Shown piece after piece: positions 290 through 34,576 of a stretch of 64,000 nucleotides of DNA (position 1 is its first letter; the number at the start of each line of letters is the position of its first letter). This stretch comes from Deltaproteobacteria bacterium (GTDB taxonomy: Bacteria; UBA10199; JACPAL01). The position numbers and the translations under genes were made by a program. The notes below the pieces were generated by a model. The model did no database searches. It was not told the origin of the DNA and saw only the letters and a program-made list of their open reading frames with translations. The DNA lies in the NCBI GenBank assembly GCA_016180855.1, contig JACPAL010000003.1, positions 1-64,000 on the forward strand. Direction: 5' to 3'.

Positions 290-1201
290 CTAACTCCACT
301 TTGGACAGGCCTTTTTAAAAAAGCACCAATGGCAGGTCTGTTCGTTTTCGGTAAACGGAAAGTCTTCTTCTTGGGCGATATTTTTCTCCGGATTTCTTAA
401 AAGCTTTTTCATCCCGTTAATCGAATTCCGGATGTAGTGCTTGGCAAAGTCCATCTTCGCCTCAATCATCCTCCGGGCGGTCTGTTTACCGGTATTGACA
501 TTGCTTTCAATCGTCTCAATCTTTTCCGTCGGTATCTTGAAAAAGTCGCGGGAGAAGAGACCATAACAATCCAGTTGGATCTCATTATCAACGTCTTCCG
601 AGCTTCCGGTTTTCCAGTCGACAATTTTCAGCCCTTCTTCATTCATGTAGGCAAAGTCTATTTTCACGTAAACCAGTGTCCCCTCAAAATGGAAGTTCTG
701 CATTGTTTCAATGAGTTTCCAATTCTCTAATGGGACCGGTTTGACCCGCTCGGGGAAGATGATGTTGGTAAAAGTCGTAAAGCACCGCTTGGCCGTCTCA
801 TGAACAGCAACCCACTTTTCATCCGGGATGTTTTTTTCATACTCATGTTCATAGAGCCCCAATAACTTTCCCGGCCTCTCACGATATTTTTTGTCGCGAG
901 ATTCCTTAAATTCACGGCGCATCCTCTGTGTTAATTGAGTCAGAAAATTCTCCGCGGGCAGCTCTTTTGTTTGTTGATAATGCTTCAAGGTATTCTCAAT
1001 CGTGTGGTGAACCACCTCGCCCAACCACATATGGCGGCTTTTGAGGTTTTTAAGAATGTAGAGCTCACGACTTTTTGGGTTCGCAGAGGCATCCCACCCT
1101 CCCCAGGAGCCATAATGATGATAGTAATACTGCCTCGGACATTCCCGGAATTTCTCATCCCGCGACTTGGACCAGGAAAATTGGTTTTGCAGGATTCCCA
1201 T
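290..1201 (-). CDS. PD-(D/E)XK nuclease, RecB/Cas4-like, with Fe-S cysteines
   Basis: A 303-residue stand-alone nuclease of the RecB/Cas4/AddB type. Visible motifs are the N-terminal S-W-S-x-x-R segment with Cys21, the GEVVHH histidine (about 65), Asp182, the D-W-K core at Asp195-Lys197, and a Q-x-x-x-Y motif at 209-213. The C-terminal C-x2-C-x5-C (290, 293, 299) with Cys21 makes the four-cysteine 4Fe-4S set known from Cas4 and AddB. The catalytic residues look intact. The family cuts DNA ends, but no helicase partner, cas gene or repeat array is near. It is divergently transcribed from the methyltransferase gene. Function inferred from motifs; its biological role (repair or defence) is open. 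Confidence 0.82.
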   Translation of the reverse strand: MGILQNQFSWSKSRDEKFRECPRQYYYHHYGSWGGWDASANPKSRELYILKNLKSRHMWLGEVVHHTIENTLKHYQQTKELPAENFLTQLTQRMRREFKESRDKKYRERPGKLLGLYEHEYEKNIPDEKWVAVHETAKRCFTTFTNIIFPERVKPVPLENWKLIETMQNFHFEGTLVYVKIDFAYMNEEGLKIVDWKTGSSEDVDNEIQLDCYGLFSRDFFKIPTEKIETIESNVNTGKQTARRMIEAKMDFAKHYIRNSINGMKKLLRNPEKNIAQEEDFPFTENEQTCHWCFFKKACPKWS

Positions 1202-23360: not shown

Positions 23361-26932
<3,572 letters not shown>

Positions 26933-26954: not shown

Positions 26955-26983
26955 TTGACTTCTGCTTAGCGGTAAGCTAAATT
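26955..26983 (+). promoter_or_regulatory. Promoter with hairpin operator, likely leaderless
   Basis: TTGACT (26955-26960), a 17-base spacer and TAAATT (26978-26983). The spacer holds a perfect inverted repeat GCTTA-GCGG-TAAGC (26964-26977). The ATG at 26990 is only six bases after the -10 box, so the transcript would start at or near the start codon. No ribosome site is visible, which fits. Confidence 0.55.
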
Positions 26984-26989
26984 GACCGC

Positions 26990-27238
26990 ATGTCGATTCA
27001 TCATATAGCAAAGGTATTGGGGAGGCGAGGGGGACGGGAGAGAGCCCGACGCCTTTCGTCCAAGAGAACAAAAGAAATCGCTTCATTTGGAGGGCGGGTC
27101 CGGGCCGAATCCCTGAAGATCGCCAAGCGGATTGAGGAAAATTTTCGTTATGTTCAAGTGATACGGCAATTGACAGAATCGCCCCCAGCTCAATCCTTAA
27201 AAACAGCCCAGGGCAAGCTCCCCGAGATTCATGGCTGA
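26990..27238 (+). CDS. Small basic protein upstream of a nucleotidyltransferase
   Basis: An 82-residue, strongly basic protein with repeated G-R-R-G-G-R-E-R-A-R-R-L-S and A-S-F-G-G-R-V-R-A-E-S-L segments, then a helical R-I-E-E-N-F-R-Y-V-Q. Small proteins of this look often precede nucleotidyltransferase genes, possibly as antitoxin-like or DNA-binding partners. That is recollection, not proof. Its stop overlaps the start of the nucleotidyltransferase gene by eight bases. Confidence 0.6.
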   Translation: MSIHHIAKVLGRRGGRERARRLSSKRTKEIASFGGRVRAESLKIAKRIEENFRYVQVIRQLTESPPAQSLKTAQGKLPEIHG

Positions 27239-27758
27239 CCCATCTTCCTATATTGAACAGACAGGACAAATCATTTCCGAGCTGGAAAAGTTTGGTTTGG
27301 CCCCAGTCCTCATTGGTGGTATGGCCCTTGTTATCCTGGGCTCACGGCGTGTCACACGAGATTTCGATTTTCTGGTTTCCAAAGAGGCACGCGATCAAGA
27401 GGGGATCATCAAGGTCTTTTATAAAAATGGCTTCGAACTGGCCTCGAAGATTGATCAACAAGGAGAGATTGTTTCGACCATCGACAATGAGCGAGTTGCC
27501 TCTATCCGCCTGAAGCTGGATGTTCCTTCAAGCGCCCATTTTTTGAATCGACAAACAGGGTTACGCATTGACCTTCTTTTTGATTTTCCGTTTCCAGCCG
27601 ATGAAATCGCCTTGCGTGCCAGAAAGAAAAAAATACATTCATATTGCTTTCGCGTTGCCTCCCGAAAAGATCTTCTTCGCCTGAAAGAAGTAGCACGAAG
27701 GAAGAGAAATCTCGCGGCAGATGTTCAAGACGTGGAGTTCTTGAAGAAACTTCGATGA
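27231..27758 (+). CDS. Nucleotidyltransferase (AbiEii/MNT-like)
   Basis: A 175-residue protein of the polymerase-beta nucleotidyltransferase superfamily. The signature is L-I-G-G-M-A-L (about 28-34) then R-V-T-R-D-F-D-F (41-48), giving the metal-binding pair Asp44 and Asp46. A third acid in R-L-K-L-D-V or L-R-I-D-L-L-F-D fits the fold. A C-terminal helical part (R-K-D-L-L-R-L-K-E-V-A-R-R-K) is typical of the family. Such proteins serve as toxins of the AbiE kind or as antitoxins. It overlaps both the upstream small gene (8 bases) and the downstream kinase gene (ATGA), implying translational coupling of all three. Confidence 0.8.
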   Translation: MADPSSYIEQTGQIISELEKFGLAPVLIGGMALVILGSRRVTRDFDFLVSKEARDQEGIIKVFYKNGFELASKIDQQGEIVSTIDNERVASIRLKLDVPSSAHFLNRQTGLRIDLLFDFPFPADEIALRARKKKIHSYCFRVASRKDLLRLKEVARRKRNLAADVQDVEFLKKLR

Positions 27759-30700
27759 GGCGGATCACAAAATTGGGTGAGGGGCTTGGTGGCGTTGTTT
27801 CTCTTGTCGAGGCAAAGGGTCAACGCGTTGCCCTCAAACAACTAAATATTGATCAGGGAAAACTGACCCCGGAAGAAGTTTTAGAGAACTTCAAACGGGA
27901 GTTTACGACACTCAAAAGACTTAATCATCCACACATTGTCCGTATCATCGATTTCGGGAGGGACGATGAAGGCAGATATTTTTTTACGAGCGAGTACATT
28001 GAGGGGAAAAACATCTTTGAGGCAACAAGGGAGTGGTCACCTGAAGAGGTGAATTTACTCTTTATACAGGTCTTAAGGGCCCTCGGTTATTTACATCGGG
28101 AACGAATCTATCATTTCGACATTAAACCTCAAAATATACTCGTTACGGTATCGACTTCCGGCGAGAAAATAGCCAAATTGATCGATTTTGGACTTGTTGC
28201 GTTTCGTAAGGAGGGGATTCTTGCTGGAACACCCGCCTATATGGCCCCAGAAAACCTTCTTGGGGGAGGCTCTGATGGTCGCGCCGATCTCTATTCGTTG
28301 GGCATTACCTGGTACGAGTGCCTCGCCGGCCAGAATCCGTTTCGAACAGCCAATTTAATGGAGACTCTTGAAAGGCAGCGCCACTGGACACCACTACCTA
28401 TTTCGCAGCAATATTCGGATATTCCTTCCTACCTCGACCCCATTTTTGAAAAAATATTAAGAAAGAATCCGTCGGAGCGCTACCATACAGCCCATCAAGT
28501 GATTCGCGATCTGAACTGGCTGGGGCAGAAAAACTATCCGTTAGAGACAGAGGCAACGGCCCTTGCTTATATTCCGGGAGAAGGTCGGTTGATCGGTCGA
28601 GAAATAGAATGGAAAAATCTGCTGCATTTCTATGGTCAGATTTTCCAATCTCATACGATTCCTCAAGGAGGTCTCTTTATCACAGGAGAGATTGGAACAG
28701 GGAAGTCACGTCTTTTAAGCGAACTCAAGTATCACGCCCAACTTCAAGGTGTACAGGTCCTACCCCTAACGGAGGTCAAGAGAGAGGATATTCGGGGAGA
28801 TACCTTGCTTCTAGCAGACAACGCGGACAATGAAACAGTTAATTTAGCAAGAAAATGGCTGAGCCAATTTTATCCCTATTCAATTATGATCTGTCTCGCA
28901 GGCCCTATCGATTTACAGGTTGATTCTTTACATAAAATTTCATTGGACAACTTTGACAAGAAAGAAGTCGGAGAATTCGTTTCTTCCGTTCTGGGCATTG
29001 AGAATCCGCCCGATTTGATCGTGGCTCCCTTTAACTCAAGAAGTGGAGGAAATCCCCTCTATCTGACAGGCCTTTTACAGGCGCTGATCCACGCCCAACA
29101 AATATTCGACGAACATGGGCAATGGAATGCAGAACTGATTGAGGGACTTCCTCTTGCGGAGGAAAAATGGGATCTCCCTTTGAAACTAAAAAATTATCAT
29201 AAAGAGACGTTTTCTCGCTTATCCCTTCCTGCGAAGAAGCTTTTGATCGGCATAGCCGTTTCAAAAACTCCACTGACCAGAACTCTTGTTGACAAGCTAG
29301 GTTTTAAGATTAGCTCCCGGGATTGGGAATCTCTCTTGGCTGCACAGTTGGTTTTATGGAAACCAAAAGAAGAAACGCTGGAATTCAAAAATGTCAGTTT
29401 AAAAGACTGGGTTTCAGGGCATGTCGATTCCTCTTTGTTGGCCTCGGTTCATCAGGCCTTGGGTGAGTTGTTTTCTCAACTTCAAGATACCAAAGAGGTG
29501 GCATGGTATCATCTTGGCTTGGGCAAAGGAAGGTCTTCGGAACGTTTTCAACTTATTTTACAATATGCAGAATATGTGGTGTCTCGAGACGACTGGGTAG
29601 AGGCGCTCCATGTCTTTCGGACAGCTCGGCTTTTTTCTTCAGAAATTCAAGATCGAATCAAGGCCTCTCTTGGTGAGGTGCAGGCCCTGTTTTTTACCAA
29701 CAACCACAAACAGGCGCTTGATCTCCTAAAGGAGACCCACAAACTTCTCAAAGAAAATCCTTCGGCCCATTGGGAATGGGTCGAAGAATGCCTTCGTGAA
29801 ATGACGATGATTTATATCAAAATGAGGGAATTTGACTCTGCCAAAGAGGTTCTGGAGGGAGCGATGTCTCTTATGGAGAGTCAAATCCGAGAACAGGTGG
29901 ATCCAAGGATCCTCTTTTTGCGTAATCTGCAGGCCAGTATCAAAATGAGGGAAGGATTTATTGATGAAGCGGCGAGGGTTTTCGATGAGAATTATAAAAA
30001 GTGGAAATCCCTTTCAAATGATCAGCAACGGAAGGTTTTGAATAACGAACTGGGGCTTACTTGGCTGGCACAAAACAAGGTAGAAGAGGCGATTCAGGTT
30101 TTTGAAGAAGAGATAAGTTATTATAAAAAAATAGGTAATATCAGAAAGCAGGCGTATGCATTTTATGGGCTTGCACAATGCTACGTTACTCTCGAACAAT
30201 GGGAAGTGGCAAGAAAATATTACGAGACATGCCTCAATTTAAGCTTGAAAAGTAGTGCCAAGGAATATCTATTTTATGCCCACAACGGCCTGGGAAAGAT
30301 AGCTCATCTTCAGAATGATTGGGAGACCTCTAAAAATCATTATCAGCATGCCTTAGAGTTGGCACAACACCTGGGAGATGAGGAGAGTAGTCTCGCTATT
30401 GCCCTCAATCTGGCGATGATTTATCGGAACCAGGGGGATCGATCCAATGCCTCCCTTTTTCTTCGCCATCTCATCAGTATCTTGGAGCAACTGAGCAATC
30501 GTTCGTTAACCTTGACACAGTATTTATGCCAAGCTTACCTTGAATCGGGCAGACTGAATTTTGAAAAAGGTGATCGGGGTGGAGCGTGCATCGCCTACCG
30601 TGAGGCGATCCGGTTGATAGATCATTGCAGCAGGTTGGAGTCCCTTCGTGCAGACGCCTTGTTGGGTTACGAACAAGCCTCTGCCACTGTAGAAGAAAAG

Positions 30701-30802
30701 GTGGAATCGAAGGTTGTCTCAAGCAAAAACGATTTAAAAACATCAAAGATCACCGAAAAAGATGTGAAGACCTTAATGGAGACACAGCTCCTAAAGAAAT
30801 GA
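27755..30802 (+). CDS. Large Ser/Thr kinase - AAA/STAND-like ATPase - TPR protein
   Basis: A 1015-residue protein. N-terminal kinase (about 5-255): glycine loop L-G-E-G-L-G-G-V-V, Lys28, H-F-D-I-K-P-Q-N (Asp122; Phe replaces the usual Arg, a non-RD kinase), D-F-G (144-146), G-T-P-A-Y-M-A-P-E. Then a P-loop ATPase with G-E-I-G-T-G-K-S (311-318) and Walker B-like D-T-L-L-L-A-D-N. The C-terminal 450 residues are helical TPR-type repeats (A-Y-A-F-Y-G-L-A-Q-C, F-Y-A-H-N-G-L-G-K-I). This order resembles PknK/STAND signalling kinases. No membrane segment is seen. I chose the ATG at 27755, overlapping the nucleotidyltransferase stop; the frame is open a further 37 codons upstream. It is coupled to a lipoprotein gene downstream. 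Confidence 0.87.
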   Translation: MRRITKLGEGLGGVVSLVEAKGQRVALKQLNIDQGKLTPEEVLENFKREFTTLKRLNHPHIVRIIDFGRDDEGRYFFTSEYIEGKNIFEATREWSPEEVNLLFIQVLRALGYLHRERIYHFDIKPQNILVTVSTSGEKIAKLIDFGLVAFRKEGILAGTPAYMAPENLLGGGSDGRADLYSLGITWYECLAGQNPFRTANLMETLERQRHWTPLPISQQYSDIPSYLDPIFEKILRKNPSERYHTAHQVIRDLNWLGQKNYPLETEATALAYIPGEGRLIGREIEWKNLLHFYGQIFQSHTIPQGGLFITGEIGTGKSRLLSELKYHAQLQGVQVLPLTEVKREDIRGDTLLLADNADNETVNLARKWLSQFYPYSIMICLAGPIDLQVDSLHKISLDNFDKKEVGEFVSSVLGIENPPDLIVAPFNSRSGGNPLYLTGLLQALIHAQQIFDEHGQWNAELIEGLPLAEEKWDLPLKLKNYHKETFSRLSLPAKKLLIGIAVSKTPLTRTLVDKLGFKISSRDWESLLAAQLVLWKPKEETLEFKNVSLKDWVSGHVDSSLLASVHQALGELFSQLQDTKEVAWYHLGLGKGRSSERFQLILQYAEYVVSRDDWVEALHVFRTARLFSSEIQDRIKASLGEVQALFFTNNHKQALDLLKETHKLLKENPSAHWEWVEECLREMTMIYIKMREFDSAKEVLEGAMSLMESQIREQVDPRILFLRNLQASIKMREGFIDEAARVFDENYKKWKSLSNDQQRKVLNNELGLTWLAQNKVEEAIQVFEEEISYYKKIGNIRKQAYAFYGLAQCYVTLEQWEVARKYYETCLNLSLKSSAKEYLFYAHNGLGKIAHLQNDWETSKNHYQHALELAQHLGDEESSLAIALNLAMIYRNQGDRSNASLFLRHLISILEQLSNRSLTLTQYLCQAYLESGRLNFEKGDRGGACIAYREAIRLIDHCSRLESLRADALLGYEQASATVEEKVESKVVSSKNDLKTSKITEKDVKTLMETQLLKK

Positions 30803-31197
30803 AGACGAGGCATCTGCTTTACGTTTTATTATTTGGGCCCTTGCTGACGGGTTGTCTTGGTGGGGAAGCAGCCCCTGTGGATCTGCCAAATCCTTTTACG
30901 CCGGGAGCCCCTCCCGTTGGAAATTGTACAGAGACGGTTACGGAAAAATCTGGGGTAAGATCCTTGATTCAAGGATACGATACAAATCCTTTGCCTGATA
31001 AGGCGGTTGATGCCTTGAAAGCGGCGTGTAATGTTTCAACAAGTGACTTAGGGTCCTTTATGGAAGGGTTTCTTTGTCAGATCGAGGCCGATATCTCCTT
31101 GGCGTCCGATGCAGAGGTGCAGGGTGATGTTGATAATCTGGAGCACGTTGACCTCTCCGACCTTACCGGCTCTTGTACAGAGATCAATCTGCTTTGA
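30799..31197 (+). CDS. Small Cys-containing lipoprotein
   Basis: A 132-residue protein with a lipoprotein signal (M-K-T-R-H, hydrophobic stretch, lipobox L-L-T-G-C at about residue 19). The mature part starts with a Pro-rich linker and has four further Cys residues spread along it, which suggests disulfides. No family recognised. The ATG overlaps the kinase stop (ATGA), so it belongs to the kinase operon. A terminator-like hairpin follows directly. Confidence 0.75.
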   Translation: MKTRHLLYVLLFGPLLTGCLGGEAAPVDLPNPFTPGAPPVGNCTETVTEKSGVRSLIQGYDTNPLPDKAVDALKAACNVSTSDLGSFMEGFLCQIEADISLASDAEVQGDVDNLEHVDLSDLTGSCTEINLL

Positions 31198-31199
31198 AC

Positions 31200-31229
31200 G
31201 TACCTTGGGTAGGGTACACTTCTTTTTTC
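31200..31229 (+). terminator. Intrinsic terminator after the kinase/lipoprotein operon
   Basis: A stem GTACCT / GGGTAC (31200-31205 with 31212-31217, one G-T pair) and a six-base loop, followed by CACTTCTTTTTTC. It directly follows the lipoprotein stop. Confidence 0.55.
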
Positions 31230-32182: not shown

Positions 32183-34576
32183 ATGAGGATGATCAAGATA
32201 GCCTTACTCCTGATCTCGTTTGTTGGGCTTCTTGGTTTTTCAAGTCACGCCGGTCCGATCAAGCTCCCCGATAAACAGAAGGTAGAATCGTTGAAGAAGT
32301 CGGAGAAGAAGTGGGTTAAACCGAAAAAAAATGAATTTCATTTCGTCAATTTTTTTTCCGAAGTTCCCCTTTGGGAAAAGGAATGGGCAAAGATCAGGGA
32401 AGATGTTTTGAACCGTTTTTACACCGATTGCATGGTCAAATTCGCCGATGACCCCGCCTGCAAATCAGACCCGATCAAACAGGATGTTGTCCTGAAATAC
32501 GGGCGCGCCATCAACAGGGGGAATTATGAAGAGGCCATGAGGCAATATGCGGCTTGGGTGAGTTACGAGCCCCTCATCAGTTTAAATACGGCCCGTGTTT
32601 ATGATTTAGCCCTCTCCGCCTTGGCCAAGGCGGTCATCACCAAGGGGAACGTCGACGAATCCAAGGAGGGGCTCAAGGCTGTCTTAAATCTGGGGATCGC
32701 CACGTGTGATGTCTTGCTTCCAACTCAAAAAGGCTGCCTTTTTCAACGAATGGTCAAGAACAATTGGTCTTTCTTTGTGGCCGCCGTGCGCGATTATCCC
32801 AATAAAGATATCGGTCTGGCCTGCGTCGATTTTGAACAAAACGAGGTGCGCCGCTACAAAAGCGGTTGTCGCGAGAAGCCGGGAGAAAAGGGAAAGAAGG
32901 TTTGTGTCTCGGCCATGGCCGGATATTTAAATACCTACAAAAACCCAGAACTTCAGGGCCCCGTCTGGGGTTGTTCTTCCTGTGAAATGGTCGAAAACGA
33001 TTTCTTCTGCGGAAAGGGTCTCCCCCCTTGTCTTGAAGCGGCGGCAGGTCCCGAGGGAACGGCCGGAATGATGCGACAGGGATCTTCCATAAGTGGGGAG
33101 AACAAAACCACTCCCTTTCAAGGCTTGACGGGTCAGGGACCCAATATCTCGCAGGGTATTGAAGGTATTGTCGGCAATGCCGAAAATCCGATGACCCAGT
33201 GCAATCCCTCAAAGAGTCTTGGATCCGGCATGAAAGGGGGTGGGGGATTTTCCATCCCCGCCGCCTGCTTCGCCCTCAAAAGAGGAGATGTGAGGTCGGA
33301 TAAAGTGCTTCAATGTGGGTATGCCTTTGCCTCTACCAAGAAATGGATCAGACTCCCCAAAACAGGCAGTCCGTGGAAAGTAACCCGGGATCCGGGATGC
33401 CAGTATTCCCAATCGGCTCGAATATCCACCGCTGATGCGATAAAGGCTAAATGCGCTCAACTAACGAGATTATGCAGTATAACCGAAGAATTGACGGACC
33501 AGGAAAGAACGCAACTCAGCACGATTACCCACAATGCCGTTGATCTTATCAGGGATAATTTAGATCTCTTCAATAAAGCCTGTTCCGCAGCACAGACCAA
33601 CGCTTGTGCGGGAACCGACTGGGGATTATTGGCTGAGGCCATTGGAGAAACGCTGATCTCCGACCCCCTTGCTGTTCAGATGAGTACAATTGAGACGGGA
33701 AAATTTGCTTTTGCTCCGGCTGTGGACCCTCAAGGTATGGGCGAATTGACGAATGCTGCGATTGTAGTTACACCGTATATGTTTCAATCAAGGGATCAGT
33801 TGAAGGCACAGGGTATTGGTAACTCTCCTAGCGGATCTTTGGCGCATGAAATTGGGCACATCATGTTAGCACAGATGGGTGTGCCAACAACCCTTATGGA
33901 GGGAAGCAAGTCGATTCACCACATATCATTGGATGAACTGTCGTGCAGGGCCCCGGATGACGAATCAGCGGGATGCCAGAATGCCGAGTCTTCCAAAGCA
34001 AAGGACACCAAAAAGGAAGACCCATGTCAAGACACGAGCGAGTACGGCCCGGATACACGAGAGTGTTGTGAAAAAAAGGGGGACTGCCAACCGGATGACA
34101 AAAAGGATGGGACAAAAAAAGATTGTGACCCGGACAGCACCGACTGCGGTTGTTCTGCTTTAAACACGGCCCAACAGCAGCTTCTTGATTGCACCAGCGA
34201 AGAAGAAGTGCATCCACGCGACCCCATCGGTCCGGTTTTCCGACCTCATGAGGAAGGAGGTGGTGATCCGCTTCTTCCCGATTACTCTTCTTGTGCGAGG
34301 GAACTTGTGGGTGAGGAGAGATCAGTACCCAATCTCTACAGATTTTCATTCGGACCCGGTGTGATCGATTGCATTGATGATCCAACAGACCCCTGCAAAT
34401 GTTACGGTTGCGGAGCTGGCGGCTCCACTCTTACCCCGGCCACTCTTTGTGGAAATGTCACCTGTCTGGAGGGAAGCTCCTGCAATCCTGCCACCGGCCG
34501 CTGCGAATCGGGTGACGGAGGGGGGGGAGGCCCAAGAACTCCCGGCGAAGGTCCAATGAGGCGACCCCTCAATTAG
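32183..34576 (+). CDS. Large exported Cys-rich protein with HExxH motif (putative metallopeptidase)
   Basis: A 797-residue protein with a signal peptide (cleavage near S-S-H-A, residue 24). The N-terminal third is helical with paired Cys; the middle is Gly- and Cys-rich (C-S-S-C, C-F-A-L-K-R-G). At 555-559 lies H-E-I-G-H within S-L-A-H-E-I-G-H-I-M-L, the zinc-binding HExxH of metallopeptidases. A possible third ligand is the D-E-L-S-C segment about 25 residues on. The C-terminal 200 residues are a Cys-, Asp- and Lys-rich low-complexity stretch and a Pro/Gly end. The whole protein matches no family I know. The motif argues for a secreted zinc protease, but a full active site is not proven. It is cotranscribed with two other exported proteins. 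Confidence 0.7.
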   Translation: MRMIKIALLLISFVGLLGFSSHAGPIKLPDKQKVESLKKSEKKWVKPKKNEFHFVNFFSEVPLWEKEWAKIREDVLNRFYTDCMVKFADDPACKSDPIKQDVVLKYGRAINRGNYEEAMRQYAAWVSYEPLISLNTARVYDLALSALAKAVITKGNVDESKEGLKAVLNLGIATCDVLLPTQKGCLFQRMVKNNWSFFVAAVRDYPNKDIGLACVDFEQNEVRRYKSGCREKPGEKGKKVCVSAMAGYLNTYKNPELQGPVWGCSSCEMVENDFFCGKGLPPCLEAAAGPEGTAGMMRQGSSISGENKTTPFQGLTGQGPNISQGIEGIVGNAENPMTQCNPSKSLGSGMKGGGGFSIPAACFALKRGDVRSDKVLQCGYAFASTKKWIRLPKTGSPWKVTRDPGCQYSQSARISTADAIKAKCAQLTRLCSITEELTDQERTQLSTITHNAVDLIRDNLDLFNKACSAAQTNACAGTDWGLLAEAIGETLISDPLAVQMSTIETGKFAFAPAVDPQGMGELTNAAIVVTPYMFQSRDQLKAQGIGNSPSGSLAHEIGHIMLAQMGVPTTLMEGSKSIHHISLDELSCRAPDDESAGCQNAESSKAKDTKKEDPCQDTSEYGPDTRECCEKKGDCQPDDKKDGTKKDCDPDSTDCGCSALNTAQQQLLDCTSEEEVHPRDPIGPVFRPHEEGGGDPLLPDYSSCARELVGEERSVPNLYRFSFGPGVIDCIDDPTDPCKCYGCGAGGSTLTPATLCGNVTCLEGSSCNPATGRCESGDGGGGGPRTPGEGPMRRPLN

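What the first reader, a model, noticed from the sequence alone, without database searches (positions are those of the whole stretch)
26955..31229. Coupled unit: small basic protein, nucleotidyltransferase, kinase-ATPase-TPR giant, lipoprotein
Four genes overlap by 4-8 bases, have their own promoter with a hairpin operator, and end in a terminator. The nucleotidyltransferase keeps its D-F-D pair. The kinase is non-RD (H-F-D) and carries a P-loop ATPase and a long helical sensor region. Nucleotidyltransferase modules and STAND-like ATPases with TPR sensors are both typical of defence and toxin-antitoxin systems. A kinase-STAND plus nucleotidyltransferase plus lipoprotein is a combination I do not recognise; it may be a phage-sensing or envelope-stress unit.
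Basis: partly seen in the sequence, partly recalled or inferred. Interest (0 to 1): 0.75.

Follow-up and report, generated by a model that had tools for sequence, protein, structure and literature searches.

The report
New MenT-like toxin–antitoxin pair
The first two of the four genes are a conserved pair found in several bacterial phyla, most likely a tRNA-modifying growth-arrest enzyme and the small protein that controls it and switches the pair's own promoter off, while the big kinase and the lipoprotein gene sit beside the pair only in this genome.

Summary
The four genes, their overlaps, promoter and terminator are real, but they are not one conserved unit. Genes 1 and 2 form an obligate pair: all 42 distinct homologues of the nucleotidyltransferase, from UBA10199-type Deltaproteobacteria, Acidobacteriota, Planctomycetota and others, have the small protein directly upstream. 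The kinase and lipoprotein are never in that operon elsewhere. The nucleotidyltransferase's best solved-structure matches, by sequence and by fold, are the M. tuberculosis toxin MenT1, and it keeps MenT1's catalytic T, D, K and D. The small protein (82 aa, two helices plus a tail) matches no known antitoxin family or fold. A palindrome, CTTAGCGCTAAG, lies in its promoter, within two mismatches in 43 of 48 loci. In 193 Vicinamibacteria genomes the exact palindrome occurs 11 times: ten before this gene, and once before a solo gene for a protein with the same GGxARAxxLSxxxRxxIA segment and no nucleotidyltransferase. That points to the small protein as the DNA-binding partner. Where the pair decays, the small gene survives and the nucleotidyltransferase is lost, never the reverse. 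Best explanation: a MenAT/AbiE-like toxin–antitoxin module with a new, autoregulating antitoxin type. Toxicity and neutralisation are inferred, not shown.

The parts
26955..26983 (+). Promoter of the pair: TTGACT - 17 nt - TAAATT; the second hexamer ends 6 bases before the ATG, so the mRNA may start at or next to the start codon
   Evidence: same layout in the homologous loci
26965..26976 (.). Operator CTTAGCGGTAAG (family consensus CTTAGCGCTAAG, a perfect 12-base palindrome), between the -35 and -10 hexamers
   Evidence: only copy of CTTAGCGSTAAG in the 2.2 Mb genome; within 2 mismatches upstream of 43 of 48 homologous genes, 0.2% in shuffles
26990..27238 (+). Small basic protein, 82 aa; proposed antitoxin and autorepressor; two helices (3-21, 24-61) and a disordered tail
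   Evidence: no Pfam, NCBIfam, PADLOC, PDB-sequence or PDB-fold match
27231..27758 (+). Nucleotidyltransferase, 175 aa; proposed MenT/AbiEii-like toxin; catalytic T42, D44, D46, K152, D164, D167
   Evidence: Pfam AbiEii above its cut-off; MenT1 best in PDB by sequence and fold; residues conserved in 40-42 of 42 homologues
27755..30802 (+). Serine/threonine kinase - AAA ATPase - TPR protein, 1015 aa; in the operon here, not part of the conserved pair
30799..31197 (+). Small acidic lipoprotein of unknown function; not part of the conserved pair
31200..31217 (+). Terminator-like hairpin

Best explanation
Genes 1 and 2 are a two-gene toxin-antitoxin module. The nucleotidyltransferase is a MenT1/AbiEii-type toxin that most likely adds nucleotides to tRNA ends and so stops translation when free. 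The small basic protein is its antitoxin and the operon's repressor: its N-terminal GGxARAxxLSxxxRxxIA segment binds the palindrome CTTAGCGCTAAG lying between the -35 and -10 boxes, and the protein also binds and silences the nucleotidyltransferase. The kinase and lipoprotein genes were joined to this operon by chance in this lineage. Shown here by computation: the obligate pairing, the shared fold and catalytic residues with MenT1, the conserved and nearly exclusive operator and its association with the small-protein segment, and the asymmetric decay. Inferred: toxicity, the tRNA target, physical binding and neutralisation.
For: Pairing: 42 of 42 distinct homologues have the small gene directly upstream, and the two proteins' distance matrices correlate (rho 0.58; maximum of 2000 permutations 0.29). 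Enzyme: 8an4 (MenT1) is the best PDB sequence hit, E 6e-8; the five best fold hits are all MenT1 or MenAT1. MenT1 T39, D41, K137, D152 (PMC11375011, PMC10435456) align with T42, D44, K152, D167. Operator: within 2 mismatches in 43 of 48 upstream regions, 0.2% in shuffles; all 18 genomes of the class with an intact small gene have it upstream; of 11 exact sites in 193 Vicinamibacteria genomes, ten precede the small gene and one precedes, by one base, a solo gene with the same segment and no nucleotidyltransferase. Decay: intact small genes with the enzyme gone or a fragment in L068 and L154, and altered small genes with it gone or a fragment in L155 and L158; no nucleotidyltransferase without the small gene. 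Docking: a natural read-through of an adjacent pair is modelled with pLDDT 90 and pTM 0.81, more than expected if the small part were loose (inference).
Against: No toxicity, binding or tRNA assay exists. The small protein has no detectable similarity to MenA1 or any other antitoxin. Both proteins are basic (pI 11.6 and 9.6), unlike classical acidic antitoxins. The pair is absent from the phage, plasmid and viral collections searched, where many toxin-antitoxin modules occur. pTM is not an interface score and no coordinates or PAE were available. Decay cases are few and come from draft genomes.
Confidence: 0.72

Rival explanations
1. The pair is not a toxin-antitoxin system but a small regulatory unit: a DNA-binding autorepressor plus a nucleotidyltransferase that modifies a protein, RNA or small molecule for a housekeeping or antibiotic-modifying purpose.
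For: The fold is shared with LnuA and ANT(2''); many flanking genes are housekeeping; both proteins are basic.
Against: Closest sequence and fold hits are MenT1; patchy presence (17 of 46 genomes) in differing positions; loss of the enzyme but not of the small gene.
Confidence: 0.17
2. One reading: the kinase senses phage or envelope stress through its TPR part and acts with the nucleotidyltransferase and lipoprotein. A narrow form: the kinase phosphorylates T42 of the toxin, the position at which MenT1 is silenced by phosphorylation.
For: 4-base overlaps and a single promoter and terminator; T42 corresponds to MenT1 T39, whose phosphorylation silences MenT1 (PMC11375011).
Against: The kinase is never in the pair's operon elsewhere; MenT1 phosphorylates itself, needing only MenA1; one genome only.
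Confidence: 0.06
3. Roles reversed, as in HEPN-MNT: the nucleotidyltransferase is the antitoxin and inactivates the small protein, which is the toxic partner.
For: Nucleotidyltransferases act as antitoxins in HEPN-MNT (PMC7641770).
Against: The small protein persists without an intact nucleotidyltransferase; its segment occurs in solo genes with the same operator; the enzyme is closest to a toxin, MenT1.
Confidence: 0.05

Closest known systems
MenAT1 (MenT1 Rv0078A / MenA1 Rv0078B) of Mycobacterium tuberculosis
   Same: Small antitoxin gene upstream of an NTase of similar size; MenT1 is the best PDB hit by sequence and fold; T39, D41, K137, D152 conserved; antitoxin is small and helical.
   Different: The small protein shows no similarity to MenA1 by sequence or fold search; [quoted passage not shown]
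AbiEi-AbiEii (and MenA3/MenA4-MenT3/MenT4, COG5340)
   Same: Nucleotidyltransferase matches Pfam AbiEii PF08843 (17 of 17 scanned); antitoxin gene upstream; autoregulation proposed.
   Different: AbiEi is a two-domain COG5340 antitoxin; here there is an 82-residue helical protein with no match to it. The nucleotidyltransferase is 175 aa against a 238-position Pfam profile.
HEPN-MNT (HepT-MntA)
   Same: Two genes, one of them a nucleotidyltransferase.
   Different: No HEPN protein; the role of the nucleotidyltransferase appears reversed.
Solo proteins of the LGRxGGxARAxxLSAKxKxxIAxxAAxARW type (loci L161, L163, L164)
   Same: Share the GGxARAxxLSxxxRxxIA segment and the CTTAGCGCTAAG-type site next to the ATG.
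   Different: No nucleotidyltransferase; different N-terminus (MPxTPKGHKRP...). No Pfam family for the one tested (L161).

Membership tests
MenT / AbiEii nucleotidyltransferase toxins | NTase fold with the GG...T-x-D-x-D motif | tested here: met
   GG in 42/42, T42 in 41/42, D44 in 40/42, D46 in 41/42; fold hits to MenT1; AbiEii PF08843 above cut-off
MenT / AbiEii nucleotidyltransferase toxins | Conserved C-terminal K and D (MenT1 K137, D152) | tested here: met
   K152 and D167 in 42 of 42
MenT / AbiEii nucleotidyltransferase toxins | Growth arrest and tRNA nucleotidylation | not testable with these tools
   needs expression and tRNA assay
MenA1-type antitoxin | Sequence similarity to MenA1 | tested here: not met
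   profile of the small protein finds no MenA1 chain in the PDB at E <= 5; no fold match at E <= 0.001
AbiEi / COG5340 antitoxin | Two-domain AbiEi protein next to the nucleotidyltransferase | tested here: not met
   upstream gene is the 82-aa protein, no AbiEi match
Type II toxin-antitoxin systems | Two adjacent co-transcribed genes, antitoxin usually first | tested here: met
   42 of 42 pairs adjacent and in the same orientation; co-transcription itself is inferred from the spacing
Type II toxin-antitoxin systems | Operator in the promoter bound by the antitoxin | tested here: inconclusive
   conserved palindrome that tracks the small protein; binding not tested
Type II toxin-antitoxin systems | Antitoxin protein binds and neutralises the toxin | tested here: inconclusive
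   confident joint model of a natural read-through pair and one fused gene (L119) whose active site is altered; no assay

The most novel reading that the evidence does not exclude
The small protein defines an undescribed DNA-binding family (segment GGxARAxxLSxxxRxxIA) that reads the palindrome CTTAGCGCTAAG, used both as the antitoxin of a MenT-like toxin in several phyla and in solo self-regulated genes.
Probability: 0.5. Interest if true: 0.6.

Novelty: new variant of a known kind. Interest (0 to 1): 0.5.

Why it matters
It would add a new antitoxin type to the MenT/AbiEii family of tRNA-modifying toxins, in mostly uncultured phyla, and it comes with an unusually sharp prediction: a 12-base operator so specific that it alone finds the genes. 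The same segment with the same operator in solo genes suggests how an antitoxin could be drawn from an existing self-regulating DNA-binding protein.

Tried and rejected
Four-gene unit: rejected by co-occurrence. Kinase as a defence kinase: PADLOC hits are generic kinase-domain matches (PD-T4-6, MAD6, PglW). HFD as special: it is the commonest form in this class. Mobile-element origin: no hits in viral contigs, plasmids or phages. Small protein as KGG, RHH or known HTH: no significant Pfam match. Off-module copies of the palindrome as a regulon: the three examined in the class lie inside genes. The first genome-contig scan with one protein found nothing; an alignment query worked. A first fusion alignment (A4) was misaligned and not used. 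A literature search for the palindrome gave nothing relevant in the hits listed. The L119 fusion is weak evidence: low-coverage contig, divergent active site (T42P, D44H, D46E).

Full report
What was checked. They follow a gene read here as gyrB (24491-26932) by 57 bases; the genes before it are read as dnaA and dnaN (from size, order and sequence, not confirmed by a family search of the window). The window's genome is a 2.2 Mb draft whose class and phylum hold the same 46 genomes. Its nearest named relatives are 'Deltaproteobacteria' MAGs of the UBA10199 type; the placement is an inference.

Is it one unit? No. Among 46 genomes of the class, the nucleotidyltransferase has close homologues in 17, the window's own included (the other 16 at 51-65% identity), and the small protein lies directly upstream in all 17. 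Relatives of the kinase's AAA-TPR part occur in 35 of the 46 and, outside this genome, are never next to the pair. The own genome has six kinase matches. The lipoprotein has relatives in only three other genomes, not beside the pair. A scan of 84,980 species genomes gave 34 true homologues; all have the small gene directly upstream, including one fused gene in a Coatesbacteria MAG (L119) and one copy cut by a contig end (L120). Counting distinct sequences over all searches, 42 of 42 nucleotidyltransferases have the partner, and the two proteins' distance matrices correlate (rho 0.58; highest of 2000 permutations 0.29). Flanking genes differ from locus to locus and are mostly housekeeping, with a few possible defence genes, two SNF2 helicases and a DNA methyltransferase among them. 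Two pair loci have a kinase domain within about 1.5 kb, on the other strand and not in the operon (L095 and L157, the latter also held as L180).

What the enzyme is. It matches Pfam AbiEii above the curated cut-off (17 of 17 scanned members match). A profile of 17 members finds MenT1 of M. tuberculosis first among all PDB sequences (E 6e-8). The predicted structure's five best PDB fold matches are all MenT1 or the MenAT1 complex, followed by other nucleotidyltransferases such as LnuA and TM1012. MenT1's catalytic T39, D41, K137 and D152, and D149 (PMC11375011, PMC10435456), align with T42, D44, K152, D167 and D164. These are conserved in 40 to 42 of 42 homologues; the exceptions are the fused Coatesbacteria copy (T42P, D44H, D46E) and L113 (D44G). 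More remote nucleotidyltransferases in the same genomes lack the small partner.

What the small protein is. It is very basic (pI 11.6; residues 1-62 carry a median net charge of +11 across the family). It is predicted as two helices (3-21, 24-61) with a disordered tail. The tail carries an LPGIY-like motif in 35 of 48 members and is missing in others, so it cannot be the only essential part. No known family or PDB fold matches; the PHROGs and Xre-like hits are weak.

The operator. A 12-base palindrome CTTAGCGCTAAG stands in the promoter, between the -35-like TTG and a TATAAT-like -10 box that ends a few bases before the ATG. It is within two mismatches in 43 of 48 upstream regions, against 0.2% of shuffles, across phyla. 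In the class, all 17 genomes with the pair and the one with the small gene and a broken enzyme (G012) have it upstream; in G001 it lies about 90 bases before the modelled start. G000 has a single copy. Of the six other sites in the class, three were examined and lie inside genes. In 193 Vicinamibacteria genomes the exact palindrome occurs only 11 times. Nine are upstream of the small gene. A tenth (G184) is at a contig end, whose last bases read as the start of that gene. The eleventh (G166) is one base before the ATG of a solo protein with the same GGxARAxxLSxxxRxxIA segment and no nucleotidyltransferase. Two further solo relatives (L161, L164) have one-mismatch sites in the same place. So the DNA site follows the small-protein segment, not the enzyme.

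Decay and transfer. In G012 (L068) an intact small gene stands before a fragment of the enzyme, in a cluster with Phd/YefM and PIN genes. In G153 (L154) the enzyme is gone. In G103 (L155) the small gene runs in frame into a Phd/YefM-type antitoxin followed by a PIN toxin. In G077 (L158) a fragment remains. In G014 (L081) a shortened small gene remains alone. The reverse, enzyme without small gene, was not seen. The tree groups modules by phylum with some nesting between phyla, which allows but does not prove transfer. In L109 the pair lies between gyrB and dnaN in another orientation, a second insertion next to gyrB.

How it most likely works. By analogy with MenAT1, the free enzyme adds nucleotides to tRNA 3' ends and blocks translation; the small protein binds and silences it. 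The small protein also binds the palindrome and shuts the promoter. If the small protein becomes scarce, repression is lifted and the enzyme freed. The joint model of a natural read-through pair (pLDDT 90, pTM 0.81) is what one expects of a docked pair; this is an inference from pTM, without PAE. Nothing here tests toxicity, target or binding.

The kinase. It shares the operon in this genome only. Since MenT1 is silenced by phosphorylation at T39, the position of T42 here, a kinase acting on T42 is conceivable. MenT1 phosphorylates itself, induced by MenA1 (PMC11375011), and the arrangement is unique, so this is given a low probability.

Noticed in passing
L155:1168-1758 (-) and 754-1155 (-): The small-protein reading frame continues in frame into a Phd/YefM-type antitoxin followed by a PIN-domain toxin, with the palindrome upstream; the nucleotidyltransferase is gone.
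   Followed up: partly
L161, L163, L164: Solo genes (MPxTPKGHKRPADV...) carry the same GGxARAxxLSxxxRxxIA segment and a CTTAGCGCTAAG-type site one or two bases before the ATG; no Pfam family for the one tested.
   Followed up: partly
window 26978-26990: The -10 box of the pair's promoter ends about six bases before the start codon here, and similarly close in many homologues, so the transcript may be leaderless.
   Followed up: no
L109:3138-7764: Another genome of the class has the pair inserted between gyrB and dnaN, in the opposite orientation, while in the window it follows gyrB: two insertions next to gyrB.
   Followed up: partly
L119:2686-3432: Small protein and nucleotidyltransferase fused in one frame in a Coatesbacteria MAG, with the catalytic T-x-D-x-D altered to P-x-H-x-E; low-coverage contig, so a sequencing error is possible.
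   Followed up: partly
L068:72-2497: Cluster of toxin-antitoxin genes (Phd/YefM with a RelE-like neighbour, PIN, a DUF2204 nucleotidyltransferase) around an orphan small gene.
   Followed up: no
window 32183-34576: 797-aa secreted-looking protein with an HExxH-like motif (HEIGH) and a Cys-rich end, no Pfam match.
   Followed up: no
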